Positions 19,717-43,340 of a stretch of DNA of 64,000 nucleotides are shown piece after piece. The stretch's first letter is position 1. Every line of letters starts with the position of its first letter. This stretch comes from Pseudopyrenochaeta lycopersici (lineage: Eukaryota > Ascomycota > Dothideomycetes > Pleosporales > Pseudopyrenochaetaceae), in NCBI GenBank assembly GCA_003313425.1, contig NHZP01000001.1, positions 248,001 to 312,000 of the forward strand, given 5' to 3'. A program made the translations under genes and the position numbers. The notes beneath the pieces are model-generated. The model worked only from the letters and a program-made list of their open reading frames with translations, searched no databases and was not told the origin of the DNA.

Positions 19717-19947
19717 CTAAGAGGCGCCGATAATCTCGGGATACACTCTCCGTACCTCAGCCTTAGTCTTCACTTCTCTGCTCCTCCTTCTTAGCTCTGT
19801 TGCGCTGATAATACTATATCTTGTCGTCGACGTGCAGAACAGCCTAAGCTCGGCCGAGCTCGGATCCCCTCCACAGCTGATGAATCCTTGCTAGAACCTG
19901 GTCAGCTGCAGACAGACATACCAGGATTGTATTCCGAGCGCAGCATC
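19717..19947 (+). repeat. left inverted arm of NLR1 segment (231 bp)
   Basis: Starts CTAAGAGG and matches the reverse complement of 23535-23765 in ungapped register. My hand count is about 157 of 231 identical positions. The best blocks are CTCGGGATACACTCTC, TGCGCTGATAATAC, GTCGTCGACGTG and TGTATTCCGAG. Inside lies a 204-bp unit (19735-19938) with its own CTCGGGATAC / GTATTCCGAG inverted ends. Confidence 0.75.
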
Positions 19948-20318
19948 TCTACATCTATACTAGCTGCGTAGTAGATGCAATAAGTACCTATGTCGAGCGG
20001 GATCGCCAAGCGAGAGACCCACTTCGCGCCTGTATCTAAATGTCAAGAAGAGACTAGCGGTATGTGAGCAATGCTGACATAATCGCTCGACTTGCAGGTT
20101 ATTCATACAAATGGCGAGTAACTCCAAGCCACACTTGACGGTGAGCCACTCACGCATATAGCTGAGCGCCTAACCTCACAGGCCCAGTACCGAAGCACTC
20201 AGCCTGCTCGACATGTTGAGGGACACGCGATGCTCTGCACCCCTCATCCTCCTCTGACAGCGAGTCTGCACTGCATCCCTCCACCCTCGCTTCTTGCTTG
20301 AGCGAAACATGTTCCACG

Positions 20319-23216
20319 ATGCGACTTCTGCAGCGCCTGCAGGACGACGTCTTCAAGCTGACCTCTTTTAACGATGAACATCTCCCGCTGTACGCCATCC
20401 TCTCGCACACCTGGACAGAAGGACAGGAAGTCACATTTAATGAAGTAGTAGCTGGCGAAGGCAAGAACAAGACGGGGTACGACAAGCTCCTGTTCTGTGC
20501 TGAGCAGGCGGCAACAGACGGCTATCAGTACTTCTGGGTCGATACCTGCTGCATCGACAAGGCAGATCCTGTCGAGCTAAGCACAGCGATTAATTCTATG
20601 TACCGTTGGTATCAGGGTGCGGCCAAGTGCTACGTATACCTCTCGGATGTTTCTATACCAGTAGAGGTTGTTAACGCCCAGGCCTTCCCAATAACATGGA
20701 TAGAAGCGTTTCGACGATGCCGGTGGTTCACACGAGGCTGGACGCTACAAGAGCTGTTAGCGCCACCGTGTGCCGAGTTCTTCTCTAGAGAGGGCAGGCA
20801 GTTAGGCAGTAAAATCTCGCTAGAGCAGGAGATACATCAAGTTACTACAGTTCCTATTAGAGTGCTGAGAGGACAAAGTGTCGCTGAGTATAGTATTGAG
20901 GAGCGAATGAGGTGGGCTGCTGCACGTACAACAACGTTCAAAGAGGATAAAGTGTACTGCTTGCTAGGTATTTTTGGGGTATTCTTACCTCTTATTTACG
21001 GAGAGGGAGAAGAATACGCAACTCAACGACTAGAGGAGGAGATAGCAAGGCGTCTGAAAGGGCAAGGAACTAGAGACCAGCAAACCCTATCTGGTGTGTT
21101 TTTGCTAATAGAGCAACATTTCTTTCTACAAACTATTCGGAGCTGACGATGAGCAGTGTCCCAATTATTACCTTTTCCAAGAAACGAGCGGTTCGTTGGA
21201 CGAGAGGATCAGCTTCAGTCTCTCAAACAAACGCTCTTCTGTTCGAATATACACTCTCGCATAACAATATATGGGCTAGGTGGTTGTGGAAAGTCGGCGT
21301 TAGCTCTCGAGTTCGCATATCGCATTCTGGCGGACCGCGCTGCAAATCGAGTGTTCTGGGTGCCTGCTATTAGCCGAGATAGCTTTGAGCTCGCGTATCG
21401 CGAGATTGCGACCAGCCTGCGCATCCCAGGAATAAGTGACAGCAACGCAGACATCAACAAGCTTGTCAAAGATACACTGAGCGCAGACAGCTCCGGCAGC
21501 TGGCTAATGATCGTCGATAATGCTGACGACCCTGCAGTCCTCCGAGGTACAGGTGATGGTGATCTAAGGTCGGCTCGGTTAAGCGACTTTCTCCCCCGTA
21601 GTCGCCAGGGCGCTATCCTGTTCACTACACGGAGTAGGAAAGCGGCTCAGACACTGACGCCTAATCGTGTCTTAGAGCTTAAAGATATGAGTCAAGTAGA
21701 AGCTAGGCAGCTTTTAGTGCAACGTGTTACAGAAGAAGCGTTGCTTGACGACTCGTTAGCTATTGACCGACTGCTTAACATACTCGCCTGTCTCCCACTT
21801 GCTATCGTGCAAGCAGCTGCTTTTATTAACAGTAATGAAACATCAGCCTCTGAGTATGTGTCATTGTTCGAACATGCAGGCGCAGAGACAGAGCTCTTCA
21901 GCGAACAATTCGAAGACCCTAGCAGGTACCAGGGAATGGACAGCACGATCGCTAAGACGTGGCACATCTCTTTCGCCCAAATACGCAGGCAAGACCCGCT
22001 TGCTGCAGAATATCTTGCGTTTATAGCGTGCATCGATCGCATCAACATCCCGCGTTCGCTGTTGCCTCATAGCAGTTCCCCTGTGCAGCAAACCAAGGCA
22101 CTTGGAACCTTAACTGGGTACGCATTTATAACAGAGCGTCAGCGAACAGTACAAGGAGCAGATAGAGAAAGGTTTTTTGATATGCACCGTCTCGTTCACA
22201 TAGCATCAGTTGCATGGTTGCATGATCACAGTGAATGGGTAGGTTGGGCCCGTACAGCTACGGACCGACTCCAGGAACTAGTGCCGTACGGCGGACATGA
22301 AAGAAAGGACATATGGGTGCCATACCTCCAACATGCTGTACATGTAGCAGGGTACGAGGACGCAGTAGATACGACAACAAGAGCGTCTCTGCTTGAACGA
22401 GTAGGCTTGTGTCAGCAAGATCTAGGACAGTATGCGGCGGCTGAAGCATCGCACGGGCAAGCGTCATCTCTGAGAGAAAAAGTACTTGGGGCTGAGCATC
22501 CAGACACGCTGACGAGCATGAGCAACTTGGCGCTTATGCTGAACAGGCAGGGTAAGTACGAAGAGGCGGAAGCGATGAACAGACAGACGCTGGCGCGGAG
22601 GGAGAAAGTACTTGGGGCTGAGCATCCCTCCACGCTGATGAGCATGAGCAACTTGGCGCTTGTGCTGAACAGCCAGGGCAAGTACGAAGAGGCGGAGGCA
22701 ATGAACAGACAGACGCTGGCGCGGAGGGAGAAAGTACTTGGGGCTGAGCATCCCTCCACGCTGATGAGCATGAGCAACTTGGCGGATGTGCTGAACAGCC
22801 AGGGCAAGTACGAAGAGGCAGAAGCGATGAATAGACAGACGCTGGCACGGAGGGAGAATGTACTTGGGGCTGAGCATCCCTCCACGCTGATGAGCATGAG
22901 CAACTTAGCGGGAGTGCTGAACAGGCAAGGCAAGTACGAAGAGGCAGAAGTGATGAATAGACAGACGCTGGCGCGGAGGGAGAATGTACTTGGGGCTGAG
23001 CACCCCTCCACGCTGATGAGCATGAGCAACTTGGCGGGAGTGCTGAACAGCCAGGGCAAGTACGAAGAGTCCCTCGCGCTGTACGGAAGAGCATGGACAG
23101 TTCTTGGGACAGATCATTCAACTACCCGCGCATGTTATCAACACTATAGCGAAGCACAAACTGCGCTCAGGGCGAGCCCTGTCCAATATCTCCCCTTAAG
23201 TTCTAGAAAGCAATAA
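20319..23216 (+). CDS. NLR-type receptor: HET / NB-ARC / TPR (NLR1)
   Basis: Two exons (20319-21093, 21157-23216) joined over a 63-nt intron with a CTGAC branch site give 944 residues. Fungal NLRs of this design are STAND ATPases thought to sense non-self or damage and trigger HET-driven cell death. The HET domain fills 1-250: LPLYAILSHTW, YQYFWVDTCCIDK, WFTRGWTLQELLAP. The NB-ARC domain has P-loop GLGGCGKS at 298-305, a Walker-B-like SWLMIVDNADD, an RNBS/sensor-like GAILFTTRSRKA and LACLPLAIVQAA. The C-terminus holds five nearly identical 42-residue TPR units (22479-23108) and one degenerate unit before them. The short tail is not repetitive. The start is the first ATG in frame, giving MRLLQRL as in other HET-NLRs. 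The intron lies between HET and NB-ARC in the same phase as in the second NLR. The gene is intact and is the only gene in its segment. Confidence 0.9.
22479..23108 (+). repeat. 126-bp tandem repeat, five units (TPR coding)
   Basis: Five direct 126-bp units encode 42-residue TPR modules beginning (K/N)VLGAEHPSTLMSMSNLA. Units differ at very few codons: ALV/ADV/AGV after SNL, NSQ/NRQ before GKYEE, and K/N at the start. The last unit diverges in its second half. Confidence 0.95.
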
Positions 23217-23534
23217 AACAGTAGTTAATTATAGATAAAATATTAAGGTTAGCGCGCGGGCTAGCAAAGATAGGTATTAGAAGCTCAAAAGCATCTTCTA
23301 TATTAAAGATATAAGTAGCCTAACTACTCATAAACTGTACTACAGCAAAGCGAGTCATGTTATAGAAGCCGTGCGTACGGTCCTTGCTTAACTAGACAGT
23401 ACCGCTTAAATACCGCTAGCCTATTTCTGACTATTTGGTACAGACGTGAAGTGGGCTGCTCGCTTAGTAATATGCTGGTGTAGATGTCTCCCGCGATTAA
23501 ACTGCAAATAATGCGCAACGAATTTAAATACAAG
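23217..23534. other. TA-rich 3' flank of NLR1
   Basis: Between the NLR1 stop codon and the right arm. TA-dinucleotide-rich and without open frames, as expected for RIP-mutated or neutrally decayed DNA. No gene seen. Confidence 0.5.
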
Positions 23535-23765
23535 GATGCTATGCTCGGAATACATCCTTAATATGTTTTCCTACAGCTGAGCGGGTGCCAGTGAGGGTGC
23601 ACGAGCCTCTCAGCAGACCCGAGGCTGACCGAGGTCATGCTGACGTACACGTCGGCGACGAGATGCTGTATTGTCAGCGCATCAAAAGTCCTTAGGAGAA
23701 ATCAAGCAGTCCAGGCAAAGACTGAGATACAGAGAGTGTATTCCGAGAGTATAGGAGTTTCCTAG
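23535..23765 (-). repeat. right inverted arm of NLR1 segment (231 bp)
   Basis: Reverse complement partner of 19717-19947. On the minus strand it starts CTAGGAAA and continues CTCGGAATACACTCTC. Roughly half of the differences from the left arm are transitions. Confidence 0.75.
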
Positions 23766-25085
23766 ATAATACTGACTTTATTATGACTGAGAGTAAAGAT
23801 TGGTTTTCGCCACGCAGGGTCTTTCGCGACATGAGGAGGGATGTTAATTTGATGGTCGCCCCAGTGCAGATTTCCTTGATTGCGTCGTGGGTAGCTGAAT
23901 ATCTTAGCTGCCACTATGCACAGGATCGTGTATTCGGGTTATTAGAACTCCTGGACGATAAAGTATTGCGAAGTGACAGCACCGGATCCCAAACCATTAT
24001 TACGAACAGCTCATCCATTTCAGACCTTTACGTGGCTTTCGGTAGATACATCATCTTCAATGTCGACCCAAACGACACAGCCTGGGGGTAGTGGCTGGAA
24101 CTCTCATTTCCCTACGATAGGATGCAAGGCTTACCTTCCTGGGTTCCAGGTCTGCATCATCAGACTTCTGATTACTCCTGCCTGCCTTGAAAAACCATTC
24201 CGGCTATCCGACAGAGCGGCAAATGTAATTTCAAAGCGAGCACGCGGACAGCACAAGTTCGAAGTGGTGCATGACCAAACGAGATGACACTATAGAGTGC
24301 GTTGATTGATACAGCCAGCTTTGTGCATGCCGAGTTCCCAGAACCTCTCCTGGAAAGTACGCCTGGGAATGAGAGTCCGGAATGTATTGCTGAACTAGTA
24401 CAGCAAATAATCGGCATAGTAGACTGGGAATCATCACTCGCAGCCAGATGCCTGGATAGGTGCACGACAAACTACGGGATCGACCAAGCCGTGGATACTC
24501 GACCTCAATATGTACCTGTATCTACTGACGCTTATTGACGGACTCTTTTGGGCAATGTTACCGAGGATGAGGGCGATACACCAACGTACGACACTAATAC
24601 CGAGTACTCTACCGCCTTTAAATCATGGAGGGATTTGCTAGTAAAGTATCGAAAGTGAGCATGACTAGTCTTAGGGTAAACTCCCCACTCAGAGAACGGA
24701 TTAACTTAGGTAGCGACAGATGTTTTACTGGGAGGAAGCACCTGAATTCGAGGCTGAATCTCAGACTGAGCAAATGCCCAAGGACACTATACGACGAGTC
24801 GGCATTGACAGGGGAGCACATCGCTTCTTCACTCGAGTTGTAAACCTTAGCAAACGACAGGTCTTTACCACTGTAAAAGGTAGGATTGGTTTCACCCTCG
24901 AGGGAGTTGAGCCCGGTGATTTAATATGCGTATTCAATGGCTTCATAGCCCTGCATGTACTTACAAGGGCAGAAAATTGTACGGAAAAGGCATATAGATC
25001 TGTTGGAGATGCATACGTACATGGCCTAATGCACGGCGAAGCAGATAAGATAGACTTACAGGTGCATGATACCATTCTAGTATAA
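23766..25085 (+). pseudogene. HET-domain gene, 3' part, broken
   Basis: Remnant of the middle and C-terminal region of a HET protein. The first frame (from about 23783) gives WVAEYLSCHYAQDRVFGLLE, matching the RDRVFALLGL block that follows the HET domain. An in-frame TAG near 24089 follows DTAWG, after which the reading continues as WLELSFPYDRMQGLPSWVPG up to a TGA near 24185. A later frame gives SWRDLLVKYRK, and the last one gives RRVGIDRGAHRFFTRVVNL, GRIGFTLEGVEPGDLICVFN and YRSVGDAYVHGLMHGEADK, the usual C-terminal block of these proteins. Several stops and frame changes show it is dead. I infer it is the other half of 18790-19716 because orientation and domain order fit; it could instead be a separate fragment. 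Confidence 0.7.
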
Positions 25086-25557
25086 TAGACTATTCCTTAA
25101 CAGTTCCAATAAGTATAACTATAAACAAACCTAATTAGTAACATAGCTATTGTGGGAGTGGGTGAAGCAACTAATGAGTAAGCTCCCTTTATTCGTTTAC
25201 TGGGGTGGTATTATACAGTAGGATGTAAATCCGCTTGTGGCTAAAGATAATGTCTTCTTTTTCTAATACAGACATGGATAGAAGCCTTTTAGATGCGCTT
25301 TATGGATCAATTCTAGTGATCCTTCCAGATAGACCCGCTTTTCTTTGGTGGCAAGCCGTTGCACGTGAATTGGCGCGTTAAGGGTCCAAAAATGATTGAC
25401 GTCACGCGTTGGTCACCACTGCATCTCAGCTCAAGGGCAAACCTCCGTCGCGCATAGAGTATTCTGTCTTTATTTCTTCCCACACCTGCTCATTGACCAT
25501 TTGTCGCAAATACAGCCCACTATCCGCACATAACCGAATTGACCAAGGATCACCAAT
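25086..25557. other. intergenic, no gene seen
   Basis: TA-rich first half next to the HET remnant, then the promoter of the following gene, with a CRE-type palindrome at 25397-25404. Confidence 0.5.
25397..25404. promoter_or_regulatory. CRE-type palindrome TGACGTCA
   Basis: Exact palindrome about 154 bp upstream of the ATG at 25558. Candidate bZIP site by sequence only. Confidence 0.4.
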
Positions 25558-26977
25558 ATGGTCGGTACACGCTCATCAACACGTAAAAATGAAGCCAGCG
25601 CAAGCCCTGTAAAGAGCGATGACGCTGCTGCGGGAACGAAGAGGAAGCCGGAGGTTAAGCCTTCTCCAAAGCGTGGCCCCAAGGCAGCGAAGAAGCAAAC
25701 AACTCTTGAGGAGACACTTGGAAATCCAGAGGAAGACAGCGAAATGAAAGACGTCGAGAACTCCGAGCAGAGCATACAAAACGAAGAGGAACAGGATGAG
25801 CCCAAGCAGGAGGCAAATGACGCAGAATCAGGCAGTAACAATAAGGATGTCAAAGAAGACGAGGTGGATGGTGCTACGACCAACGATAACGCAGCCGGGG
25901 ATGCTACAAATAGTAACGCGAAGCATTCTACAGCGAATGGAAATGGTGCGATTGAGAAATCGTCTCAGCGCGAGAAACAAGTTCCGTCAAATATATTGGA
26001 GAAAGGTGTTATATACTTCTTCACACGTAACCGCGTTGGGATCGAAGACGCCGATAGTGTAGATGACCTTCAGCGAACTTTCTTTGTGCTGCGGCCCCTT
26101 CCAACTGGCGCAAACCTAGGCGACGGCAGCGTTCAGGACCTCAATAATAACCGGCTTTTTGCGTTACCGAAGAAGAAATTTCCTAAATCACACAGCGACC
26201 GCTTCATGGCTTTCGTGGAGAAAGCGAATACAACCATCCAGGATCTCAAGGACAACTTCTTCGCTGCCAATGAGTACGAGACCAAAACACAAGGCACTCG
26301 ACGAACCGAACCCGTGACTCCTACGGCAGAGGGTGTTTACGCGATCACGCGCACTGAAGATGCTACCACTCATCTTGTCTACTCAACTACTATTCCTTCC
26401 AAGCTTGGTGAGGTGCAGGAGGACATTGGTATAAAGTCACAGGGCAGCTTCATAATCAGCGTCAAGAACCCCGAGCGGTCAGGGCCAGCTTCTGCTCGAC
26501 TGCCACAGAAGCCCGACTTTCCAAAGGAGTAGGTAAATTTAATGGATTGAAAATGATCAGGCTAACCGTCTGCAGAATCATCGAAGAGTTTCGTAACTTG
26601 GCTTGGACTGAGGTCAAGCCTAAGTATCTCAACTATCCGTACTGCCAGATCCTCCTCATTGGCGAGAAGGTTGACAAAGCTGTTGAGCCCACCAAGAAAG
26701 ACCAGAAGCATGACAAGGAGACACCTCAGGAAGAAATCGAGAAGCTCGAGCACGAAGATGAGCTCCGCGTTCAACATCTTAATGGTAAGCATTACACATA
26801 GTACTGAAGTTCTCTCGGACCTCACAAGCTTCCCGATTCGAAGCTGCGAAGCTACTGGAACAGGCCCTGGTTATATTCAACTATGACGGCGCTGACAGAT
26901 GCCCAGGTGACGACTCTATTTATGACGACCTCAAGATTAGCAAAGACGAATATCCAAAAGTTCCTACCACCTGGTAG
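25558..26977 (+). CDS. conserved fungal nuclear-type protein (often labelled BTB domain transcription factor)
   Basis: Three exons (25558-26528, 26576-26784, 26907-26977) give 416 residues. Intron 1 is 47 nt with a GCTAAC branch; intron 2 is 122 nt. The first 140 residues are lysine-rich and then acidic, with a possible nuclear signal KRKPEVKPSPKRGPKAAKK. The conserved part is VIYFFTRNRVGIEDADSVDD, FFVLRPLPTGANLGDG, NRLFALPKKKFPKSHSDRFM, GTRRTEPVTPTAEGVYAITR and the end DDLKISKDEYPKVPTTW. I recall this family from other filamentous fungi under the name BTB domain transcription factor, but I see no BTB fold in it, so that label may be a propagated error. Splicing out intron 2 gives HLNGDDSIYDDL. 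Keeping part of it would also stay open (LLEQALVIFNYDG), so this join is the weak point. Confidence 0.7.
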
Positions 26978-27546
26978 ACATTTGTTTTAAAAATTTAAGC
27001 TCAAGGAAATTGCTTTTTTGTTGTTGTAGCATGCCTGTTTCCATATATGCTGTAAAAATAAGGAGATCCAGTCTTCCCAGCGACTCAATTCATGGGACAG
27101 GGACTTGTGATGTTGTTGAGCATCTAAAATGGACAACATAACGGAGTTACCCTTATCTACTGAAATTAAGCCCCCATAGGGTTATCTGTCAGTCGCATCA
27201 TACTATTAGCTACCAAACCATACAGCGAACAGATTCCTCAGAAAAACCCAAGAGGTTCTTAGCTAAATTAACCTTCGCTCGAGCCGTGCTGCTCTTGCAT
27301 TTGTTGACATCCCAATGTTCACTTCACCTTGCGAATCACTTTCACAATCATGCATCACTTCACCATGACCCAAGCAGGCTGCTACCAGAGCTAGTAAGGA
27401 GGTATATTTTATCAGTTCTTGCCAACTTCTTCATTCTCTACCTGCCTTTCTTACAGCTTCTAGGTGTGGAGCAATATTGGCGATCTCCCCCTCCCCCAGC
27501 CATACCCACCCATTCCAACCACCATTCGCAGCGCTCAATCAACAAT
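26978..27546. other. intergenic, no gene seen
   Basis: 3' region of the previous gene and promoter of the BTB/POZ gene. An open frame runs from 27286 into the BTB gene but lacks an ATG and has UTR-like composition. Confidence 0.5.
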
Positions 27547-28947
27547 ATGACTCAATCATCGACCTCGGCCGTCGAGGAGCATCAAACGGTATCCTGGCAA
27601 CTCCGGTCTTTTGCTGTTGACAAAGATTCTCAGTCCGCAAGCCCCGCAGACTTGATCTTGGACCGCGCCAACGGAGAGTTTGGCTTCATTCGTTACACTT
27701 CGCCCGCTATGGCTATCGTCGTGCAGTTCCCAGACACGGGGGAACCCATCTACTTCCAAGCAAAAGATGCACTCGCCGCAGCCTGGCGAACTAAGTCCCG
27801 GAAGATATCGATCCTGTTCCAGCACTTGCAGTTTGATCTAGAGTTCAGCTCACCAGGGCAGGCTCGTGGTTTCCTATGTGTTCTGCAAGATCTCGCTATG
27901 GCAGCTGGTAGCCACTCCTTCTACAGTCATGAAGTTCCTACGTGAGTATGTTCTCGTTTATTAAGGAGTCTTGAACTGAATGATTCGTGATTAGGGACCG
28001 GGTGTTCATGCGAGCTGACTTTGACATGACCAAGCACGGCTTTACTGGCCGTGTTGTTCAACCATGGATGGCAGTACCTGTTGAGATATTCGATTGGCCG
28101 CAGTAGGTACAGGATAAATTCGAAAAGACATGGCACTGATTGCGAGCAGCCTCCGGAAGACTGGGGAGTGGTCTGACTTCACCATCATCGCTGAGGACAA
28201 GAGGTTCCCCGTGCATCGCTTGAAGTAAGCTAGACTGGTGCATCCTAGACTCAGGAACTGACCATAAACATCAGGATATGCAAGGAGTCCTTTTACTTCA
28301 GAGCGGTCTGCGGTGGAGGCTTCGTGGTAAGTGTGGCCAGCAACCAGCAACCAGTCACCAAGCAACTGACAATACCAAGGAGAGCGCGATGCAGTCCATC
28401 CGGCTTCCAGAGTCGGCAAAAACTATCAACACAATGCTCGATGAGATGTATGGAACCTATAATGAGACTACCGGATCTCTTTTCACGAACTTTGCGCTTC
28501 GACTGGAGATCGAGAAGGAGCGCATTATTAATCAGCTGTTGGCCTTGTTCATCACCTCTGATAAGGTTGGGTGCTCTTGTCTAAGCGTTTAGACACCTGC
28601 TAACATGCATACAGTACAGTCTCGAAAAGATCAAGCATAGGGCAGCGGAAGCAATCATCGACCGCCTACCCTTCATCCATGATGCCTTAGTAATCGTGGA
28701 CCTGGCAGCCTCCATCTACAACGAAAATTGCCCGGAGAATGATCGTGGATTGCGCAAGGGTATCATTGCTCACCTCCAAGCTCGAATGCCGGCAATCATC
28801 GGTGATGAGAGTGCCTGGCAGGAGTTCTCGGAAAACAAAACGCTGTTGAAAGCTTTCCATGCGTATCAATGCGAGAAGCCTGATTCAGACTCCTCAATGG
28901 GGTCCATCACACCGCCAGCTACTCCTGCGAAGAGGCACGATGGATAA
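27547..28947 (+). CDS. BTB/POZ domain protein
   Basis: Six exons (27547-27941, 27995-28102, 28150-28224, 28275-28326, 28380-28565, 28615-28947) give 382 residues. Introns are 47-53 nt and the frame closes through all five. The N-terminal 170 residues form a region I do not recognise (SWQLRSFAVDKDSQSASPAD, FQHLQFDLEFSSPGQARGFL). A BTB/POZ domain follows: GEWSDFTIIAEDKRFPVHRL, KICKESFYFRAVCGGGF, SAMQSIRLPESAKTINTML, DEMYGTYNETTG. After it comes a helical tail, KYSLEKIKHRAAEAIIDRL. BTB domains dimerise or bind Cul3; which applies here is unknown. Donor five is GTTGGG, unusual but followed by a good TGCTAAC branch. The ATG is the first in frame after UTR-like sequence. Confidence 0.83.
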
Positions 28948-29419
28948 TTGGATTCGTTGATGCAGAAGGATATTCGAAGTTTGTGTCTGCTTAGGAATGC
29001 GCGTCGTAATGATCAGGTCTCTTACGCATCACATCTGATCAACTTACCGATTGACGCGTAAGGAATGCTGTGGCTTGGATGTATCCCACCATCGGAAGGC
29101 CAGATGGTGAGATTTGAGGTTGATTCAGCTCGAGTCGGCTGATCGTGTGAACTTCCAGCTTAGAATGGAAGGGGAAATTTATCGCGCGAATGCATATAAC
29201 TTCGAGTGCCATTGAGAAATTATAATAATCCTACTCTTACACAACGAACTTCCTAATAGAGGATCTTATAATATGTACCACTCCTGAGCGCTTTGACTTT
29301 CAAGTACCCTCAGATGTCAAACCTCAACACGTGCCACCGCGTCTCGCACTAGCGAGGGGACCTGCAAACCTCAACACGTCACCGCCTCCGCCCGCTCGCG
29401 CGCGCGTCTTGTTGCCCCA
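28948..29419. other. intergenic, no gene seen
   Basis: 3' region of the BTB gene and promoter of the MYST gene. A CACGTG E-box lies near 29330. Confidence 0.5.
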
Positions 29420-33967: not shown

Positions 33968-35441
33968 TAGTCAGTCTAACTTTTTTCGACCTAGCCCGAT
34001 CGTCACCACAAACGAACCTCGCGCATTGTCAGCTTTCAGACTTTGGTTCTATTGCTGTGGTGACAATCATCAAATATCTAGAAAGATGCCTTATACGATA
34101 TCGTGTTTTACGATGGATTTGCCAGTAATCGAAGCCGCCACGAAGTATAATTGACCAACCATGCCTATGTAGTGTAGGCACCTGCATGAAACAATCGCCA
34201 AAGCCCGTCGGAACCTCATCGGGTTCCCTTGGTCGGTCGTTATTCTCCCCACCGCCCATCTCTCATCTCACCATAGCGCTACCCATATACTGTATACCAG
34301 TATTGTAGTTAAGGTGTCACGAACTCTTAACGTCATAATCTTGCAGCTTCCAAGTACTGAACAGCCCTTCTGTCCTTGCCAGATGAGGGGCTGTGACCGT
34401 AACTTCCAGTGGATCTGCCCTTCCGACTCACTAGATTGACTTGATGCCAAATGATCAATAAGCCCACTTCTTCCACCATTCTCCGACGAAATTTGAATCA
34501 ACTTATGACTTCGACGGGACTGGGGAGCCTGCACTTTCAGAGTCCACCTGCAGTGCCCTCAGACGCAAGATAAGACTTGAACCTCAAAGGGCGTACTGGT
34601 TGAGCACTATTACCTCTGACAGCATCTTCTAACTAATCATTGAACCTCTTATTACCCACTGAGAGTTGATGTCTCTAGAGGACGCCCTGGACGAGATCCC
34701 AGGATAATATGAATGCTACGATCTACTTGTGTAGGTCGCAATGGAGAAGTTTGGCTGTGAGGCTCCTGAGCTCTTTGCCCTGTTATAAGTCGCTCGGTAC
34801 TCTCCACATGAGGTCCAAGCCACGCCTGACTCGGCTCTTGCTGCTGGTAATCTGTGCTCCCTACCCTCTGGTCATAACTCACACGGAAAGCGATTATCAG
34901 GATACTGGCCTGTGGCACCCTTAAAGTCAATTATGACCCTTGGTTCGGAGGGGATCTCTTCTACTTCTAGTATTTGCTCAGATTTTTCAGCGATGAGCTC
35001 TGCGGGCAAGCCACCTTCAACCGCGTCCCATACTTTGTCGCGTATCTCAAAGTAGGCAATATGCTAGACGATATCTAAATTTTCAAGTAACTGGTTATAC
35101 AAATAGGCATTATGCTCGTTCCATTATCAAGATCCTAGCGCCCACGGGACATTACACGGTTTACTAACTATGCAGCTCTTTGCTCTTCTTCTAGCGGCGG
35201 CTACGTCCCAGTACTCCTCGCGGTAAGGCAGCAGCCCTCGGAATGTAACTTTAAAGTGGTGATTGGCCTCAAAGCAGCGCGCACAAAAGTTTCGAGGGCT
35301 GCTATCTTCGACCTTTTGGTTGAGAATCTCAACCACGGCTGTCAATTTTGACCCTAAAACCCCACCATATAAACCCTCTAATCTCGCCCAGAAATGCCGA
35401 TCCCCCAGGACTTCGACACGCACTTCACCACTTCATAAAAA
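33968..35441. other. intergenic, 1.5 kb, no gene seen
   Basis: Divergent promoter space between cutC (minus) and the phosphoesterase gene (plus). Only short, unsupported frames. Confidence 0.5.
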
Positions 35442-36470
35442 ATGTCTTTCTTCACACCCCAATTCCAGATCGTGTCCGATCTCCACCTGGAAACGCCCCT
35501 AACAACGCCGCTCTACGCTTCCTTTCGTCTCAACGTGCAAGCCGACAATTTACTTTTGCTCGGCGATATAGGCCTCGCTGTAGACGCTGGACTGTTCCAA
35601 TTCTTACGCCGCATCCTGGAACAGAATAGAGGGTGTCGCATATTCTATGTACTGGGAAACCACGAGCCCTATCGAACAACATATGAGCATGCATACAAAT
35701 TGCTGCGCGACTTCGAACACGAGGCCAAGGACGATCTCGGCGGTCGCTTCAAATTTCTATGCCGCGATCGCTACAATCTAGACAAAAATATTACCATCTT
35801 GGGCTGCACATTATGGTCCGCTATTCAACACAACCAGGAATCGGACATTGCCTCTCGCTCGACCGATTTGAATAGCGAACGTGGCATTCAAAATTGGACA
35901 CTGGAGCGGCATCGAGAAGAACACGAAAAAGACCTCATGTGGCTGAATTCTCAAATATCTACTATTGAGGAAGACGAACCACATCGTCAAATCATGATCG
36001 CAACGCATTACAGCCCAACAATAGATCCAAGAGCCAATGATCCACAACATGAGGGGAGTTCTGTGTCGAGTAATTTTGTCACAGATTTGTCACAAGAGCC
36101 ATGTTGGCTTTCCCCAACAGTCAAGCTCTGGGCTTTTGGACATACGCATTACAGCTGCAATTTTTGGGACGAAAAGACCGGAAAGCTTGTTGTTGCGAAT
36201 CAGAAGGGATATTCCGGACTTGGGGCGGGAAGGAAGAGGGTGGGAATGAAAATGAAAGTGGTGGAAGCAGGGAAGGAGGGGTGGGAGGTGGTTGAGACGA
36301 GAAAGATTGGTCGAGAAGAACAGATCCGAGCGATAGATACGCAGACTGAGAAGGAGGTGGTAGATGATGGTGAGAAGGAAATTGATGCGGAAACACCCAA
36401 AGTCTCATTGCTGCATCGCATAACCAGGCGGATACAAGTCTTCGCGGTTCGCGGCGGAAATGTTTCATAG
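35442..36470 (+). CDS. calcineurin-like metallophosphoesterase
   Basis: Intronless, 342 residues. All metal-binding motifs of the class are present in order: IVSDLHLE (D13, H15), LLLLGDIG, VLGNHEPY, IATHYSPT and FGHTHYSC. The enzyme is therefore probably active as a two-metal phosphoesterase. The substrate cannot be told, and the fungal members are mostly uncharacterised cytosolic proteins. The C-terminal 80 residues are charged (GREEQIRAIDTQTEKEVVDD) and are not part of the core fold. The ATG is the first in frame and sits seven codons before the first motif. Confidence 0.9.
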   Translation: MSFFTPQFQIVSDLHLETPLTTPLYASFRLNVQADNLLLLGDIGLAVDAGLFQFLRRILEQNRGCRIFYVLGNHEPYRTTYEHAYKLLRDFEHEAKDDLGGRFKFLCRDRYNLDKNITILGCTLWSAIQHNQESDIASRSTDLNSERGIQNWTLERHREEHEKDLMWLNSQISTIEEDEPHRQIMIATHYSPTIDPRANDPQHEGSSVSSNFVTDLSQEPCWLSPTVKLWAFGHTHYSCNFWDEKTGKLVVANQKGYSGLGAGRKRVGMKMKVVEAGKEGWEVVETRKIGREEQIRAIDTQTEKEVVDDGEKEIDAETPKVSLLHRITRRIQVFAVRGGNVS

Positions 36471-36833
36471 TGGCGACAAAGAAGATGAGACGTTCTAGTT
36501 ATTATCCGTAGAAAGGTAAGGACATTCTAGTAAGTATAATGAGTATGCTATAATGTATACTTTACATAGTTTATGTTCTGGACTATTCTACTTAAGCTAA
36601 GTTGCTAGATACACTCTTTAGTTCTATTTTATACTACTGTTTAGATCTAATTACTTATCTTGTAGAATATTCTTAAGAGCTAGCTAGTTTATACTAGTTG
36701 TTTTATATTATAACTACTCAGCCAGCCCATCTTAATACTACAATAGACTGTAGATTAGATAGGAGAACTTGTCTTAAGATCCTATAGTTGTATGTAAAGA
36801 TATGTTGTCTAAATTGTATTTACATAGTGCTTT
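36471..36833. other. TA-rich decayed DNA, RIP-like
   Basis: About 360 bp very rich in TA dinucleotides with no open frame. It lies between a normal gene and a transposon-like region and resembles RIP-mutated repeat remnants. Composition was judged by eye. Confidence 0.45.
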
Positions 36834-37046
36834 TGTTGCAGACAACGCGCCGTAGCCTGTTGTACGGTGCGCAGCGTGTGCTCACGTGCGAGCTCACGCA
36901 CGTCCTGTACACACACGCTACTCTCGCCCCTGCCGTAAGCTGGCCCCTGCAGTAGGCCGTGCTCAGCTCTCTCTTATATGAGATCCCAATACGATACCTG
37001 TGTTAAACACCCTTCCCTTTTATGTGGGATGGGTAGGGTGTTGACA
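36834..37046 (-). repeat. possible solo LTR
   Basis: On the minus strand this 213-bp block begins TGTCAACACCCTACCC and ends GTTGTCTGCAACA, the TG...CA ends of an LTR. A TATA-like segment (TCATATAAGAG) is inside, and the first about 45 bp can fold as an imperfect palindrome. No clear 5-bp target duplication, so the call is tentative. Confidence 0.33.
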
Positions 37047-37261
37047 CTTCGTCGTTGAGGTGCACGCGGGTCCGGTCTGTGGTTCCAGCGCCCAGCGCGA
37101 ACTTACCATGCTATAGTACCAACTGGCGACAGTGCTAGTTATGTCATGTAGCGAACAAAATGCTACGCGCCCAAGGACTTTGCACAGATAAATCTCATAT
37201 TTACTTAAAACCTTGTTCTCCTCGTTCAGTCAAATATTTTACTTACTTTGATGCTGCTACT

Positions 37262-37375
37262 ATCCCTCACCACGTTGCGAGAATCACCCCGTTGCGAGAA
37301 TCACCCCGTTGCGAGAATCACCCCGTTGCGAGAATCACCCCGTAGCGAGAAAATCAATAGGTACTTAGACTTTAC
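37262..37375 (+). repeat. left terminal repeat with 17-bp units
   Basis: Four exact copies of GTTGCGAGAATCACCCC run head to tail at 37274-37341, followed by a variant GTAGCGAGAAAATCA and an inner block shared with the right end. The array extends the terminal repeat compared with the right side, which has only two units. Confidence 0.8.
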
Positions 37376-37598
37376 AGTTATAAAAATCCTTCTCACATCG
37401 ACTTATTCATATTTTGCTGTTTGGTCATGTATTAAGGGTCTTTCCTGATAATCTGACTATCGCTATTCAGATAATTACCATCCTTGTCGTCGCCATCGCG
37501 GCCTAGATAACAAGGGTCTTGTTTTGTATCCAGTAATTACCTTTATCTTGAGCGAGATAATCCTGCCGCCACCTGCGCGTCTACGTAATAATTACAAT

Positions 37599-37635
37599 GT
37601 AATAATTACAGTGTAATAATAAGCCACTCTAGCAG
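37599..37635 (+). repeat. subterminal inverted block, left
   Basis: TAATAATTACAGTGTAATAA followed by AAGCCACTCTAG matches the reverse complement of 42864-42899 with a few mismatches. Together with the terminal block it suggests arms of about 380-480 bp that have lost colinearity through insertions and deletions. Confidence 0.55.
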
Positions 37636-38007
37636 ACAAGCCAAGCCAGTGGCTATCAGATACGTGGCTCTGCGCACCACCCAGAGGCCAACATCTCACA
37701 AGGACGAATCTACGACAACAATGTGCGAAAAATTTGTGTGACACTATTCAGGCTGCCACCACTAGTTACACCTATGGCTATTAAAGATGCACTGCGCATG
37801 GCCATGTGCTGCGTCGCACTCGCTCGCGCTCGCTCGCTGAGCTGCCTCCTGCTGCCCATTACGATATCTAATAAATTTGCCCAGCTGTCCTTGCATCTGC
37901 ATTCCCTTCGTCGTACGTGTTGCTTGGGTAAAATCACCACATTAGGGCTATACTCGAATTACTGCCAGAAGGTCGCAAGAAGTAGAAAGCGATTTTGCTC
38001 TTATGGG
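37636..38007. other. 3' flank of NLR2 within the segment
   Basis: No gene is supported. The plus-strand frame starting at 37723 runs into the antisense of the NLR2 coding sequence. Confidence 0.5.
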
Positions 38008-41000
38008 CTATCTTGCATTCAGCCGCCTTCGCTTCACAGATCTCGACTTTGGTGCTCCAATCTCTGTAGAATCATCGTGGCCTTCTTTCAGCTCAACAGA
38101 CGCAACTTGCATCGCTTGAAGCCGATCTTTAAGTTGCTTACACCATTTCGAAGAAGGCCCTTGGACAGCTCCGTATCCAGCCAGTGCCTGACTATACATT
38201 CTCTCCGCTGCATTTTTACGGCCTGTCTGGGAGAAGAGGTCACCAAAGGAGAACATTGTATTCAATGCCGGCAAATAAGACAGCAAAAGCTCAGGTCCAA
38301 GTGCCTCCTCGTAGCCTTGCAGCGCCCGAGTGTACATAGCCTCCGCGTCAGCCAGCTTGCCTTGGTCAGCGTAGAGCAAGCCTAGGTTGTTGACTGTATT
38401 GAGTGTTGATGTGTGCTTCAGTCCAAGTGCCTCCTCGTAGCCTTGCAGCGCCCGAGTGTACATAGCCTCCGCGTCGGCCAGCTTGCCTTGGTCAGCGTAG
38501 AGGTTGCCTAGGTTGTTGACCGTTAAGAGTGTCGATGTGTGCTTCAGTCCAAGTGCCTCCTCACGGCCTTGCAGCGCCCGAGTGTACATAGCCTCCGCGT
38601 CAGCCAGCTTGTCTTGGTCAGCGTAGAGGTTGCCTAGGTTGTTGACCGTATCGAGTGTCGATGTGTGCTTCAGTCCAAGTGCCTCCTCGTAGCCTTGCAG
38701 CGCCCGAGTGTACATAGCCTCCGCGTCAGCCAGCTTGCCTTGGTCAGCGTAGAGGTTGCCTAGGTTGTTGACCGTATCGAGTGTCGATGTGTGCTTCAGT
38801 CCAAGTGCCTCCTCACGGCCTTGCAGCGCCCGAGTGTACATAGCCTCCGCGTCGGCCAGCTTGCCTTGGTCAGCGTAGAGGTTGCCTAGGTTGTTGACCG
38901 TATCGAGTGTCGATGTGTGCTTCAGTCCAAGTGCCTCCTCACGGCCTTGCAGCGCCCGAGTGTACATAGCCTCCGCGTCAGCCAGCTTGCCTTGGTCAGC
39001 GTAGAGCAAGCCTAGGTTGTTGACTGTATCGAGTGTCGATGTGTGCTTCAGTCCAAGTGCCTCCTCACGGCCTTGCAGCGCCCGAGTGTACATAGCCTCC
39101 GCGTCAGCCAGCTTGCCTTGGTCAGCGTAGAGGAAGCCTAGGTTGTTGACTGTACCGAGTGTTGATGTGTGCTTCAGTCCAAGTGCCTCCTCGTAGCCTT
39201 GCAGCGCCCGAGTGTACATAGCCTCCGCGTCAGCCAGCTTGCCTTGGTTTTTGTAGAGGTTGCCTAGGTTGTTGACCGTATCGAGTGTTGATGTGTGCTT
39301 CAGTCCAAGTGCCTCCTCACGGCCTTGCAGCGCCCGAGTGTACATAGCCTCCGCGTCGGCCAGCTTGCCTTGGTCAGCGTAGAGCAAGCCTAGGTTGTTG
39401 ACTGTATCGAGTGTCGATGTGTGCTTCAGTCCAAGTGCCTCCTCACGGCCTTGCAGCGCCCGAGTGTACATAGCCTCCGCGTCAGCCAGCTTGCCTTGGT
39501 CAGCGTAGAGCAAGCCTAGGTTGTTGACTGTATCGAGTGTCGATGTGTGCTTCAGTCCAAGTGCCTCCTCACGGCCTTGCAGCGCCCGAGTGTACATAGC
39601 CTCCGCGTCAGCCAGCTTGCCTTGGTCAGCGTAGAGGAAGCCTAGGTTGTTGACTGTACCGAGTGTTGATGTGTGCTTCAGTCCAAGTGCCTCCTCGTAG
39701 CCTTCCAGCGCCCGAGTGTACATAGCCTCCGCGTCAGCCAGCTTGCCTTGGTTTTTGTAGAGGTTGCCTAGGTTGTTGACCGTATCGAGTGTTGATGTGT
39801 GCTTCAGTCCAAGTGCCTCCTCACGGCCTTGCAGCGCCCGAGTGTACATAGCCTCCGCGTCGGCCAGCTTGCCTTGGTCAGCGTAGAGCAAGCCTAGGTT
39901 GTTGACTGTATCGAGTGTTGATGTGTGCTTCAGTCCAAGTGCCTCCTCGTAGCCTTGCAGCGCCCGAGTGTACATAGCCTCCGCGTCGGCCAGCTTGCCT
40001 TGGTCAGCGTAGAGCAAGCCTAGGTTGTTGACTGTATCGAGTGTCGATGTGTGCTTCAGTCCAAGTGCCTCCTCACGGCCTTGCAGCGCCCGAGTGTACA
40101 TAGCCTCCGCGTCAGCCAGCTTGCCTTGGTCAGCGTAGAGCAAGCCTAGGTTGTTGACTGTATCGAGTGTTGATGTGTGCTTCAGTCCAAGTGCCTCCTC
40201 GTAGCCTTGCAGCGCCCGAGTGTACATAGCCTCCGCGTCAGCCAGCTTGCCTTGGTTTTGGTACAGCAAGCCTAGGTTGTGCGGCGCCCATTCTATTCCC
40301 TTGATATCTACATAGCCGTCTGTAATAAAATGGTTATGCCTTCCAGCATGTTGGAGGAGCCGCTGCTGTAGGAGCCACCACTTGTCTACGTCCGTGCTAG
40401 GAACTTCAGATGCCACGCAAGACATGGCTACCCTTGCTAGGCCGTCGTCCCACTCGCTATTCAACACATATATCGTCCACGAGTGCACACAGCTATGTAC
40501 TCCATACCCTGCGGCCCCAGTCGGCTGTCTAAGTGAAGGTTCTGGATGAGCCAGACCGTATTCGCATAGCAGTCGAACTGCCTTAATAAAACTCAATTCG
40601 TCTTCTGTAAGCTTCTGTATCCACTCATCATCCGCAGAGCAGGCATGTCGAAGAAGTCCGAACCATATGTCTTGCTTATCGAAATATGCCCACAGCTTGA
40701 GTAACTGGGCTGATGCCGCGTTCTGTTTTCGTATCCGATCAAAAGTAACCTGCCATGTCGTGTACAGCGATCGGTCTTCATAGGAGCTCAATCTCGGACT
40801 CGTCGTCTGGAGTTTCAACCAAGACGCCTCGTATAGCCGAAGATACTCCGCGAAGCTAGTGGCCATATGCTCTAGATAAGCCCCAGCCGTAGAGAGAGCA
40901 AGTGGTAGGCCGTCTAGCTTCATTACAAGCGCTTTTGCATCAGAATCTATTAAATAAGCTCAGTGTAACTCATTGAAGACTCAAGTAACATACCGTTTTC

Positions 41001-42420
41001 AACTCCCTCTCTTCCAGACATATTCGACAGGATCTTGAGTCCGTCCTCTAGGCCTGTCAACTTCTGAACGTGAAGACGCCGACCTTGGGTAACACTCGCT
41101 GACCGCGTCGTAATGATGATTGAGCCTTGGTCACTTTCTGGCAGATACCGACGTATATCTACTGTTGAGCGGTCGGAAGCATTGGAGGTTCGGGGGTTGT
41201 CGTAATTGTCATAGACCATCAGCCAACGGGTATTGTCTCGGAGATCGAACCAGGCTTTGACTGCACTAACCACTCGATCAAGGTCTCCTTCTAAGTCCAC
41301 ATTACTAAGCACTCTAGTCGAAGGATGATACTTTAAGACTTGCTGAGCGATGCCGCGAAAGCTAAGCCGGAGAGAGTCTTTATCATTCGCATTCAGCCAA
41401 AATATCGCTGTGTGTTTTTCTTTGTGCCTTCTGATGTATTCGATTGCGAGCTGAGTCTTTCCAATTCCTCCAAGCCCATGCAAGACTGCTGCCGATCGGT
41501 TACTGTGACCATAAAGCTGCTCATGCATCTTCAATAACTCCTTCTCTCTAGCAACGAATTGTGTAGCTTCAGGAAATGACGTAAGATTAAGTCCGACGGC
41601 ATATTGTTCGAGATCAATACCTATGCTAGTCAGTATCATTGCTTTAATCAGCACATCTAGGCAAAAGTATACCCTTGTGCAACTTGTGGATTTCTTCCTC
41701 TAGCCGCCGAAATGCTTGGTCTCTTCCCTCACCATAGTTTGGCACTATAGAGACACCACAGATTCCGATTAAACAGTACACTTTATCCTCTTCAATTGTA
41801 GTATTGCGGCGCTCGGCCCAGGACCTCCGCTCTTTAATACTAAAACTCGTCAATGCATCGCCTCGAAGAGCATTCTTCGCAATGCCAGTAATTTCATGTA
41901 TTGCGGACTCTAGCACCAACTTGCTCCCAAGTCGCTTGGCTTCTAAGCTGAAAAAGTCAACCAGCCTTGGTGCGATGAGCTCTTGAAGCGTCCAGCCTCG
42001 GGTGAACCATCGACTTGTCCTGAAATCCTCTTCCCATGCCCTTTTACTATCCGCTTCGGCGGGTTTGGTGACATCCGAAAGGTAGACGTAGCAGCGTGCG
42101 GCATTCTGATACCACCGAAACATGGAGTTGATCGCCGCGCCGAGTTCTACCGCATTCCTTTTGTCAATGCAGCAAGTGTCTATCCAGAAGTATTGTAGTC
42201 CATCAGCTGCGGCCTGCTTTGCACAGAACTGTATTTTTCTCCACCCAGCCTTATTCATAGTCTTGCTCATATCCGCGCTGTCTTCCAGGTCGTGAAAGGT
42301 GACCTCCTCTTTTCCCCATGTGTGAGAGAGTATTGCGTAAGCAGGGACATGGCTGCTGGTAGGTTCGCGAAAGACGATCTCGCCGTCCGGTTTAAGCTGT
42401 AAGAGGCGTATGAGGGCCAT
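38008..42420 (-). CDS. NLR-type receptor: HET / NB-ARC / TPR (NLR2)
   Basis: Three exons (41673-42420, 40994-41620, 38008-40946) with introns of 52 and 47 nt give 1437 residues. The domain plan is the same as NLR1. HET fills 1-249: VPAYAILSHTW, LQYFWIDTCCIDK, WFTRGWTLQELIAP. NB-ARC has P-loop GLGGIGKT at 298-305 (the same residue numbers as NLR1), Walker-B-like RWLMVYDNYDN, GSIIITTRSASV and LDGLPLALSTAGAYL. Sixteen 42-residue TPR units follow at about 679-1350, then one degenerate unit. The tail ends KSRSVKRRRLNAR, a possible nuclear signal. The first intron separates HET from NB-ARC in the same phase as NLR1. Expected role: a sensor whose repeats bind a ligand, NB-ARC oligomerises and HET triggers cell death; this is family knowledge, not shown here. 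The gene is intact. Confidence 0.9.
38272..40287 (-). repeat. 126-bp tandem repeat, 16 units (TPR coding)
   Basis: Sixteen direct 126-bp units encode modules of the form VNNLGxLYxxQGKLADAEAM plus YTRALQGxEEALGLKHTSTL. Differences are confined to a few codons: L/N/F in GxLY, AD or KN before QGK, Y/R before EEALG, and D/G/N/L before T. A four-unit block (504 bp) is duplicated: the rare KNQ unit recurs at 39241 and 39745. Confidence 0.97.
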
Positions 42421-42863
42421 GGCTGAGGCGCGATCTCATGGCAAGTGCGACTCGTGCGGCTTGTTCGGCATGGCGGCGCGAGCTGTTCGAGGGTTGACAG
42501 CACTGAAGCAGACGTCGGAGGACTGATCGTGATGAGGTGGTGAAGTGGTGGTCGTAGGCACTGCCCACAAGGCTGCGTCGTGGCGCAGGCGGGCTGGTGA
42601 AGGGATGCTCATGTCGCCTGGATGTTATTGGAAGCCTCACAGTAACACACCGAACCTTGACGCGAACCGCCCGCTTTTACATGTAGCAAACCATTTGAGA
42701 CTTTGCAAAACTGATAAAAGGCGGTTAGAGAGCAAATTTGCTCTAAGGTAGAGCGTTCACACTTGTTGAATAAGAGAGTCAAATAACGGTAGTGCAAAAT
42801 TCGCAAGCCACTGATACCTGGGTGCTGTGCCACATGTCTGCCCGCCACAGACTTCCCATGCTG
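42421..42863. other. NLR2 promoter region
   Basis: No gene supported. Short frames on both strands. Lies inside the TIR-bounded segment. Confidence 0.5.
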
Positions 42864-42899
42864 GCCAGTGTGGCTTGTATCATACTGTAATTATTACGT
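42864..42899 (-). repeat. subterminal inverted block, right
   Basis: Reverse-complement partner of 37599-37635. On the minus strand it reads ACGTAATAATTACAGTATGA, then AAGCCACACTGG. Confidence 0.55.
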
Positions 42900-43280
42900 A
42901 CCCCTGCAGGTTGCGCTGCAGGATAGCCAGGCCTCTTCGCTTAGATCAAGAGGTACCAATCGCCGTAGCGACCTCGCATGAATTATCCATAATTTCCCGC
43001 CATAGGGCTGATCATGTCTTGTTAGCGTAATTGCACTGTTTTGGAACTCGAATACTATTATATTATAGCTGTTTAAAGTTCTAAAAGTTAAGCGCTGAAG
43101 CTATAATAGAGAAGCCCTATTATATTGCAGAATATGACTACCTAATGCTAGGCACTACGTTGACGATGAGGACAGTAATTTTTCCATCAGCAGCAGCTAG
43201 AAGGTAGAGGAAGATACAGGTTACCTAGCTTAAGCACTAACGCATGGATATCTGGAAGTGGGAAGACTTTAAACAGCTTT

Positions 43281-43340
43281 GAAGTTGAAGTACCCATGAT
43301 TTTCTCGCTACGGTGTGGTTCTCGCTACGCAGTGGGGGAT
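43281..43340 (-). repeat. right terminal repeat
   Basis: On the minus strand it carries ATCCCCCACTGC, one 17-bp unit GTAGCGAGAACCACACC, the variant GTAGCGAGAAAATCA and GGTACTTCAACTT, mirroring the left end. Confidence 0.75.

What the first reader, a model, noticed from the sequence alone, without database searches (positions are those of the whole stretch)
19717..43340. Two NLR immune-type receptors, each the only gene between its own pair of inverted terminal repeats
NLR1 (19717-23765 segment) and NLR2 (37262-43340 segment) share the same HET/NB-ARC/TPR plan, the same P-loop residue numbers (298-305) and an intron in the same phase between HET and NB-ARC. Yet the inverted repeats around them are unrelated. 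Two independent TIR-type contexts for two related receptors, about 14 kb apart and with no transposase, suggest that mobile DNA repeatedly acquires or spreads this receptor class. Seen: repeats, intact genes, absence of transposase motifs. Inferred: mobility and cargo status. NLR turnover in fungi is known; systematic carriage inside non-autonomous TIR elements would be notable.
Basis: partly seen in the sequence, partly recalled or inferred. Interest (0 to 1): 0.88.

Follow-up and report, generated by a model that had tools for sequence, protein, structure and literature searches.

The report
Transposon family shuttling fungal immune genes
Two immune-type receptor genes of a fungus each sit between the end sequences of one jumping-DNA family, other copies of which carry many different self/non-self recognition genes, so this family likely copies and moves such genes around the genome.

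Summary
The inverted repeats are real and are transposon ends; corrected boundaries are 19654-23846 (NLR1) and 37258-43344 (NLR2). They are not unrelated: both elements end in one superfamily motif, matched 186 times in the 62.7 Mb genome (reversed control 0), as two subfamilies. Of 15 other paired elements read, 9 carry HET genes (HET-NB-ARC-TPR, HET-NACHT-WD40, HET-TPR-DUF7104, HET alone), in at least three unrelated HET classes, between shared ~640-bp arms that start exactly at the ends. HET density inside is about 12-27 times the genome mean. One HET-bearing element (C43) has empty sites elsewhere with a single TA (101 of 102 bases identical in two of three fetched copies): direct evidence of unit insertion. 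An element with the same ends holds an intact pogo/Fot-type transposase, the likely, unproven, mobiliser. Movement of NLR1 and NLR2 themselves is inferred: their arms are old and no empty site was found in a capped search. The NLR1-type subfamily shows little association with receptors. The genome is almost certainly Pseudopyrenochaeta lycopersici ER1518; its 2018 paper noted HET genes near repeats, not as cargo of one TIR family.

The parts
19654..23846 (+). NLR1 element (subfamily D), TA at both ends
   Evidence: ends read; right end is a profile hit; relative with complete left end at C6:1231840
19654..20076 (.). left terminal inverted repeat of the NLR1 element (outermost motif partly deleted)
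23397..23846 (.). right terminal inverted repeat of the NLR1 element
20319..23216 (+). NLR1 gene: HET, NB-ARC, TPR; predicted intron about 21094-21156
37258..43344 (-). NLR2 element (A family), TA at both ends
37258..37506 (.). left terminal inverted repeat of the NLR2 element, begins with tandem copies of a 17-bp CACCCCGTTGCGAGAAT motif
43148..43344 (.). right terminal inverted repeat of the NLR2 element; similarity to other A arms runs inwards for about 400-525 bp
38008..42420 (-). NLR2 gene: HET, NB-ARC, long TPR array of near-identical 126-bp units; predicted first intron about 41672-41621

Best explanation
NLR1 (19654-23846) and NLR2 (37258-43344) lie between terminal inverted repeats of one genome-wide superfamily that inserts at TA, and each is likely a cargo gene predicted to be moved in trans by a pogo/Fot-type transposase. 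Shown: shared termini; shared ~640-bp arms with different interiors in the A family; repeated HET-gene cargo; a single-TA empty site for a HET-bearing member, and a junction-spanning one for the transposase-bearing member. Inferred: that the pogo-type enzyme recognises all subfamilies; that cargo is gained when arms of different elements come to flank a gene (C43 has a left arm closest to one element and a right arm closest to another); that the result is turnover of the allorecognition/NLR repertoire; that NLR1 and NLR2 themselves moved this way.
For: Termini: 186 matches (93+/93-) to the general motif, 0 with the pattern reversed; 40 for the A motif, 47 for the D motif, both with control 0. 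Arms: all 228 ordered comparisons between 16 arms of ten A elements start at base 1 of both arms, at 81-99% identity over the first 600 bp, while interiors mostly differ. Cargo: 9 of 15 paired elements read outside the window hold HET domains; 10 HET genes in 99.2 kb against 0.37-0.82 expected, Poisson P 8e-12 to 2e-8 (14 elements, L061 left out). At least three HET classes, 41-81% identical within and mostly 20-33% between. Empty sites: C43 flanks joined by one TA match 6 other places over equal spans of 105-107 bp at 81-98%; of three copies fetched, two agree at 101 and one at 95 of 102 bases. The transposase element C54:160468-167067 has single-TA copies whose match runs 50 bases left and 12-15 bases right of the junction. 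A 562-bp short relative inside the C5b arm shows the same TA duplication against empty arms. The C5a element's two flanks joined at one TA give one frame open over 150 codons, the other two frames holding 7 and 11 stops. Transposase: intact 649-aa DDE_1 ORF inside 48-bp, 92% TIRs; a 60%-identical homologue on C51 has a superfamily terminus 621 bp upstream of the match (score 37.7, reversed maximum 3.7). Arms of three young elements differ almost only by transitions (19:0, 28:2, 24:4), as expected under RIP.
Against: No empty site for NLR1 or NLR2 was found; but one search scored only 40 of 231 candidates and did not even list NLR2's own left flank, so absence is weak evidence. Their arms are 65-67% identical with balanced transitions and transversions, so any move is old. 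The transition bias is not general: C43 50:23, C13b 49:19, C7 82:19, C42 0:2. In the NLR1-type subfamily none of the seven paired elements holds a listed NB-ARC or top-150 HET hit, while three have one within 5 kb outside; the one read (L061) holds a MULE. Four further pairs seen only by coordinates (C15, C2:1421584, C37 twice) hold no listed hit either. These lists miss weak hits (C13b was blank too, yet holds a HET domain when read). The pogo unit may itself be a passenger: its 5.66-kb interior is 98.8% identical to a C28 copy whose right arm is only 71% similar and whose left neighbour is a MULE gene. For two of five pogo loci examined (C37, C5) the ~900 bp read upstream held no correctly oriented terminus. 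HET genes are also common outside TIR elements.
Confidence: 0.75

Rival explanations
1. HET/NLR genes merely sit in repeat-rich regions; pairs of independently inserted MITE-like repeats bracket them by chance and never moved as a unit.
For: HET genes near repeats were noted for this genome (PMC6034849). Unit movement of NLR1 and NLR2 is not shown. Several HET/NB-ARC hits lie just outside termini (9 within 9 kb outside against 16 inside, two of them counted in both; three beside D-type pairs).
Against: C43 carries its HET gene into an exact TA site. Arms within C5a, C14 and C54a are 95-97% identical, face inwards and are full length at both ends. Density inside is about 12-27 times expectation.
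Confidence: 0.15
2. The family is cargo-bearing TIR DNA as described, but its mobiliser is a Mutator-like (MULE) transposase; the pogo unit is a nested passenger.
For: Long arms are typical of MULEs (recalled). MULE or MuDR domains lie inside the A elements of C34 and C46, and a MULE lies between D arms in L061.
Against: Insertion duplicates TA only, whereas MULEs make 8-11 bp duplications (recalled). Seven further copies identical to the L061 MULE have no D terminus of the list within 6 kb (two have one at 6.2 kb), so the L061 MULE looks nested.
Confidence: 0.2
3. The inverted repeats around NLR1 and NLR2 come from ordinary segmental inverted duplication or gene conversion of flanking DNA, not from a transposon.
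For: Large palindromes exist in this assembly (C42), and both arm pairs are old.
Against: Three of the four window ends are the only strong places for a terminus profile built elsewhere, and these termini delimit arms all over the genome.
Confidence: 0.04

Closest known systems
Tc1/mariner-pogo (Fot) DNA transposons of fungi and their MITEs
   Same: TA target duplication, terminal inverted repeats, DDE_1 transposase in one member with the same ends, short non-coding relatives of ~560 bp
   Different: most members read are 4-11 kb; many have arms of ~480-940 bp with tandem end motifs and carry HET/STAND genes instead of a transposase
ToxhAT (PMC6737239, passages seen)
   Same: TIR element of about 14 kb in Pleosporales carrying host genes, among them a patatin-domain gene with short tandem repeats
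   Different: named as a hAT-type element; 74-bp TIRs; cargo around a virulence gene; no family of swapped immune-gene cargo in the passages I saw
Starship giant transposons
   Same: mobile DNA of Pezizomycotina with cargo that can include an NLR (one sesA-NACHT-WD NLR in Gaeumannomyces, PMC12134995, passages seen)
   Different: Starships are tyrosine-recombinase elements up to ~700 kb with many genes (abstract); these are 4-11 kb TIR elements with usually one cargo gene and TA duplications
TET/JBP-carrying DNA transposons of fungi (PMC12730594, abstract and outline seen)
   Same: several DNA transposon lineages repeatedly captured one functional gene class
   Different: there the cargo is a dioxygenase thought to help the element escape silencing, and the lineages named in the abstract do not include pogo/Fot; here the cargo is HET/NLR genes
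HET genes near repeats in Pyrenochaeta lycopersici ER1518 (PMC6034849, passages and section 16 read)
   Same: almost certainly the same assembly (188 unitigs, 62,731,747 bp; held copy 188 contigs, 62,731,430 bp); 42 HET genes reported near repeats
   Different: proximity only in what I read; no TIR family, ends, target site, empty site or cargo claim

Membership tests
Tc1/mariner-pogo (Fot) transposons | TA target-site duplication | tested here: met
   empty/filled pairs for C43, C54:160468 (12-15 bases on the right side) and a 562-bp short relative
Tc1/mariner-pogo (Fot) transposons | DDE_1 (PF03184) transposase between the same ends | tested here: met
   one complete element, C54:160468-167067, 649-aa intact ORF, E 1e-30; nesting not excluded
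Tc1/mariner-pogo (Fot) transposons | CENP-B/Tc5-type DNA-binding domain in the transposase | tested here: inconclusive
   Pfam at E<=0.01 reports only DDE_1 for the C54 protein; several homologues carry PF03221
Tc1/mariner-pogo (Fot) transposons | the enzyme acts on these ends | not testable with these tools
   needs an excision assay
Mutator-like elements (MULE) | 8-11 bp target-site duplication (recalled) | tested here: not met
   2 bp TA only
hAT elements (as ToxhAT) | 8-bp target-site duplication (recalled) | tested here: not met
   2 bp TA only
Starships | giant size with many cargo genes | tested here: not met
   paired elements read are 3.8-11.2 kb
Starships | tyrosine-recombinase captain gene at one end | not tested
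   no dedicated search made; none appeared among the ORFs given to Pfam
Fungal HET-type NLRs | HET effector + NB-ARC + repeat domain | tested here: met
   both window genes

The most novel reading that the evidence does not exclude
A pogo/Fot-type TIR transposon superfamily has become a dedicated shuttle for the fungal self/non-self recognition repertoire: its arms are constant, its cargo is exchanged, and it repeatedly captures, recombines and reinserts intact HET, NLR and ankyrin/TPR genes at TA sites, making an immune repertoire that turns over by transposition.
Probability: 0.45. Interest if true: 0.9.

Novelty: new variant of a known kind. Interest (0 to 1): 0.8.

Why it matters
Fungal HET and NLR genes differ sharply between strains and species, and how the repertoire turns over is an open question. 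Here a defined DNA transposon family with known ends and a 2-bp target carries such genes as the commonest cargo among the elements read in one genome. That makes turnover testable: the ends give PCR and read-mapping markers for presence/absence, the candidate transposase can be assayed, and strains can be compared cargo by cargo. It also points to immune-gene mobility outside the Starship system.

Tried and rejected
MULE as the family transposase: it looked compelling in L061 (MULE between 99.8% identical D arms), but the protein search shows seven identical copies elsewhere without a D end within 6 kb, and the target duplication is TA, so it is treated as nested.

A hAT-like 884-aa ORF in the C68 element (Dimer_Tnp_hAT) was considered as mobiliser and set aside: it was seen in one element, and hAT makes 8-bp duplications (duplication length recalled).

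The 20-kb span C34:432194-452154 was first taken as one element; an internal terminus at 442636 makes it a composite, so only 432194-442636, whose two ends are of different type, was counted. Dropped before counting: C34:448418-452154 (mixed ends; read; a TPR ORF), C54:291861-300133 (HET inside, no left end found), and pairs of 233-562 bp, too short for cargo (C37:107781, C41:296639, C46:87940, two on C5; C6:1704387 and C37:113345). Imperfect ends among counted elements: C2's right end lacks a clear TA, and C68's right end lacks its last bases.

Arms left out: C5b left (interrupted), C13a right (extra motif), C34 right, C68 right, and all arms of C2, C54:160468, C13b, C7, L061, NLR1 and NLR2.

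Empty-site search for 13 elements: full-length success for 1 (C43), junction-spanning on a short right side for 1 (C54 transposase element), a left-flank-only repeat for C54a; for the rest only own-locus matches, and for some flanks not even those, because 40 of 231 candidates were scored.

Enrichment caveats: the HET list is the best 150 of 520 candidates, the terminus list shows 100 of 186 hits, and a Poisson model ignores clustering of HET genes in repeat-rich DNA. The inside/outside count (16 against 9 within 9 kb) is a weaker contrast, includes both window genes, and two hits fall in both classes.

Literature: searches found 0 papers; others (25 of 561 shown; 15 of 1,443; 13 of 13; 20 of 31; 13 of 13; 12 of 207) listed no paper that, by title and start of abstract, describes HET/NLR genes as cargo of a TIR family. 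Most subscription papers are not in that library.

Relatives in other species could not be tested: the genome tool says this genome has no relatives there, the genome-contig collection is prokaryotic, and metagenome scans were capped at 0. Protein relatives of the NLR2 NB-ARC exon are plentiful (1666 hits, best listed 85-86%) but come without genomic context.
Full report
WHAT WAS CHECKED. The window is C1:248001-312000 of a held genome of 62,731,430 bases in 188 contigs. The published Pyrenochaeta (now Pseudopyrenochaeta) lycopersici ER1518 assembly has 188 unitigs and 62,731,747 bp (PMC6034849, passages; name). I infer that this is the genome; named relatives of its transposase include Pleosporales such as Pyrenophora.

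THE OBSERVATION. Both receptors lie between inverted repeats far above chance. Pfam confirms HET, NB-ARC and TPR in each. The HET parts are 53% and the NB-ARC parts 31% identical, so the two genes are not recent duplicates. Among the cargo compared, NLR2's closest relative is in the C2 element (HET 81%, NB-ARC 64%), itself a TIR element; public NB-ARC relatives reach 85-86%.

THE ENDS. NLR2's left arm matched 34 places including itself, many in facing pairs 4-11 kb apart. Reading those pairs gave a sharp terminus, TAACATCCCYCACTACGTAGCGAGAACCAC (40 hits within 3 mismatches, control 0). A general form, TAACRTCCCTCACTGCGTRGCGARA, has 93 forward and 93 reverse hits, control 0 (first 100 listed). 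NLR1's ends belong to a D subfamily, TAACRTCCCTCCCTGCGTGSCGAAARACC, with 24 forward and 23 reverse hits, control 0. A profile made without window rows finds three of the four window ends and no other strong site in the window.

THE ARMS. I compared the first 600 bp of 16 arms from ten A elements. All 228 ordered comparisons between elements start at base 1 of both arms, at 81.0-98.6% identity; interiors mostly differ, apart from related HET genes. One search lists 44 matches to one A arm, some of them pieces of the same arm, with 40 of 103 candidates scored. Within one element the arms are 97% (C5a, 937 bp; C14, 647 bp), 95% (C54a), 84% (C43) and 99.9% (C42) alike; NLR1 65%, NLR2 64%, C2 73%. 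In C14, C5a and C54a differences are nearly all transitions (19:0, 28:2, 24:4), a RIP-like signature. In C43 (50:23), C13b (49:19) and C7 (82:19) the bias is weaker, and in NLR1, NLR2 and C2 it is gone (80:60, 36:32, 32:36), so these last three are old.

THE CARGO. DNA of 15 paired elements outside the window was read. HET-bearing (9 of 15): C2 HET-NB-ARC-TPR; C5a HET-TPR-DUF7104; C5b HET-NACHT-WD40; C13a HET; C14 HET; C43 HET; C46 two HET genes (one HET-TPR-DUF7104); C54a HET; C13b HET. Not HET (6 of 15): C42 C2H2-ankyrin; C34:432194-442636 ankyrin plus a MULE; C68 a hAT-dimer ORF and uncharacterised ORFs; C7 TPR repeats only; C54:160468 the pogo-type transposase; L061 a MULE. Pairs were chosen by their ends, not their content; the window's two were excluded from the statistics. 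Ten HET genes in 99,208 bp (14 elements, L061 left out) compare with 0.37 expected from the 231 modules of PMC6034849, or 0.82 from 520 first-look candidates. By coordinates alone, C14:185262 to about 192281 (right end extrapolated) is a further pair around an NB-ARC hit, and C11:288993 and C6:1231840 are single ends beside NB-ARC hits. Against: the seven D-type pairs and four other pairs seen only by coordinates hold no listed HET or NB-ARC hit (the HET list is the top 150 only, and C13b shows that it misses weak domains). The strong association is therefore an A-family result; NLR1 is the exception within D.

SEVERAL CAPTURES. HET domains in these elements fall into one group with NLR1, NLR2, C2, C5b and C13b (52-81%), one with C5a, C14 and C46-2 (47-56%), one with C13a, C43, C46-1 and the uncounted C54b (41-60%), and C54a apart; between groups identity is mostly 20-33%. 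The same arms thus hold unrelated receptors. C43's left arm is closest to an arm of C54a (93.6%), its right arm to one of C5a (98.6%). This chimera suggests that two elements' arms can come to flank a gene and then act as one unit (inference).

MOVEMENT. C43's flanks, joined with one TA, match C88, C34 (two places), C35, C54 and C37 over equal spans of 105-107 bp at 81-98%. Of three copies fetched, two agree at 101 and one at 95 of 102 bases: filled ...GAGAGAA[TAACATC...GATGTTA]GACAGG..., empty ...GAGAGAATAGACAGG.... A 562-bp non-coding relative inserted in the C5b arm gives the same TA duplication against uninterrupted arms. The transposase-bearing element has junction-spanning copies with one TA, matching 12-15 bases on the right side. 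The C5a element sits inside a patatin-like ORF: its flanks joined at one TA leave one frame open for 150 codons (Patatin match below the curated cut-off). No such copy was found for NLR1 or NLR2, in a search that scored 40 of 231 candidates.

THE LIKELY ENGINE. C54:160468-167067 has A-type ends and an intact 649-aa ORF with a DDE_1 domain; TA duplication fits pogo/Fot elements (recalled). NLR2's right arm is similar to this element's right arm over 412 bp (62%) and to C2's over 513 bp (63%). A homologue on C51 (60%) has a superfamily end 621 bp upstream; homologues on C37 and C5 show none in the right orientation in the ~900 bp read. The interior recurs at 98.8% on C28 beside a MULE gene (81% to the L061 MULE's second ORF) and a right arm only 71% similar, so nesting is possible. 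I put the pogo-type enzyme at about 0.55 and a MULE at about 0.2.

WHAT IT DOES. The cargo are receptors of the fungal allorecognition and immune type (family names from Pfam; function not tested). I propose that the family spreads and recombines such genes at TA sites, raising turnover of the repertoire, and that old members such as NLR1 and NLR2 persist because the intact receptor is kept while the arms decay. The last step is inference: arms near 65% identity around open frames, and a C6 relative of NLR1 (84% over 3.4 kb) whose NB-ARC hit carries two stop codons.

PRIOR WORK. PMC6034849 (section 16 read) reports 42 HET genes near repeats. ToxhAT (PMC6737239, passages), one NLR in a Gaeumannomyces Starship (PMC12134995, passages) and TET/JBP-carrying DNA transposons (PMC12730594, abstract and outline) are the nearest precedents for cargo. 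PMC12258605, on NLR organisation in Sordariales (passages), has no occurrence of 'inverted repeat', 'mobile' or 'Starship' in its main text. None of the listings showed a TIR family with HET/NLR cargo; most of those listings were partial.

Noticed in passing
G000:C42:352893-372409: Large palindrome centred near 362651: NB-ARC hits, termini and flanks are mirrored about an ankyrin gene; the 2419-bp inner arms are 99.9% identical. Real inverted duplication or assembly artefact is undecided.
   Followed up: partly
L061 (G000:C34:570350-574300): The arms' identity runs on into the flanks (about 78 bp beyond the terminus), as if the element sat at the TA centre of a palindrome; C42 looks the same.
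   Followed up: partly
G000:C5:1757973 and 1765642 (L035): The C5a element lies within a patatin-like ORF (Patatin E 3e-4, below the curated cut-off); its two flanks share one open frame.
   Followed up: partly
window 38295-40280 and 22472-23069: TPR arrays of 126-bp units, about 92-97% (NLR2) and 85-94% (NLR1) alike between copies: recent internal homogenisation of the sensor repeats.
   Followed up: partly
genome-wide MULE and pogo homologues: Many copies carry numerous TAG/TAA stops, fitting RIP, while eight MULE copies are listed at 100% identity over 376 aa: recent activity beside RIP.
   Followed up: no
C46:94159-94581 and C54:293603-294130: PDDEXK_12 nuclease-like ORFs occur inside or between A-type ends in two loci; possible second cargo or accessory gene.
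   Followed up: no
C46:100080-101188, C28:141445-142400, C68:59930-61000: The right flanks of three elements are similar to each other (77-98%), so they share a duplicated insertion site; in C28 and C68 the last bases of the terminus are lost.
   Followed up: partly
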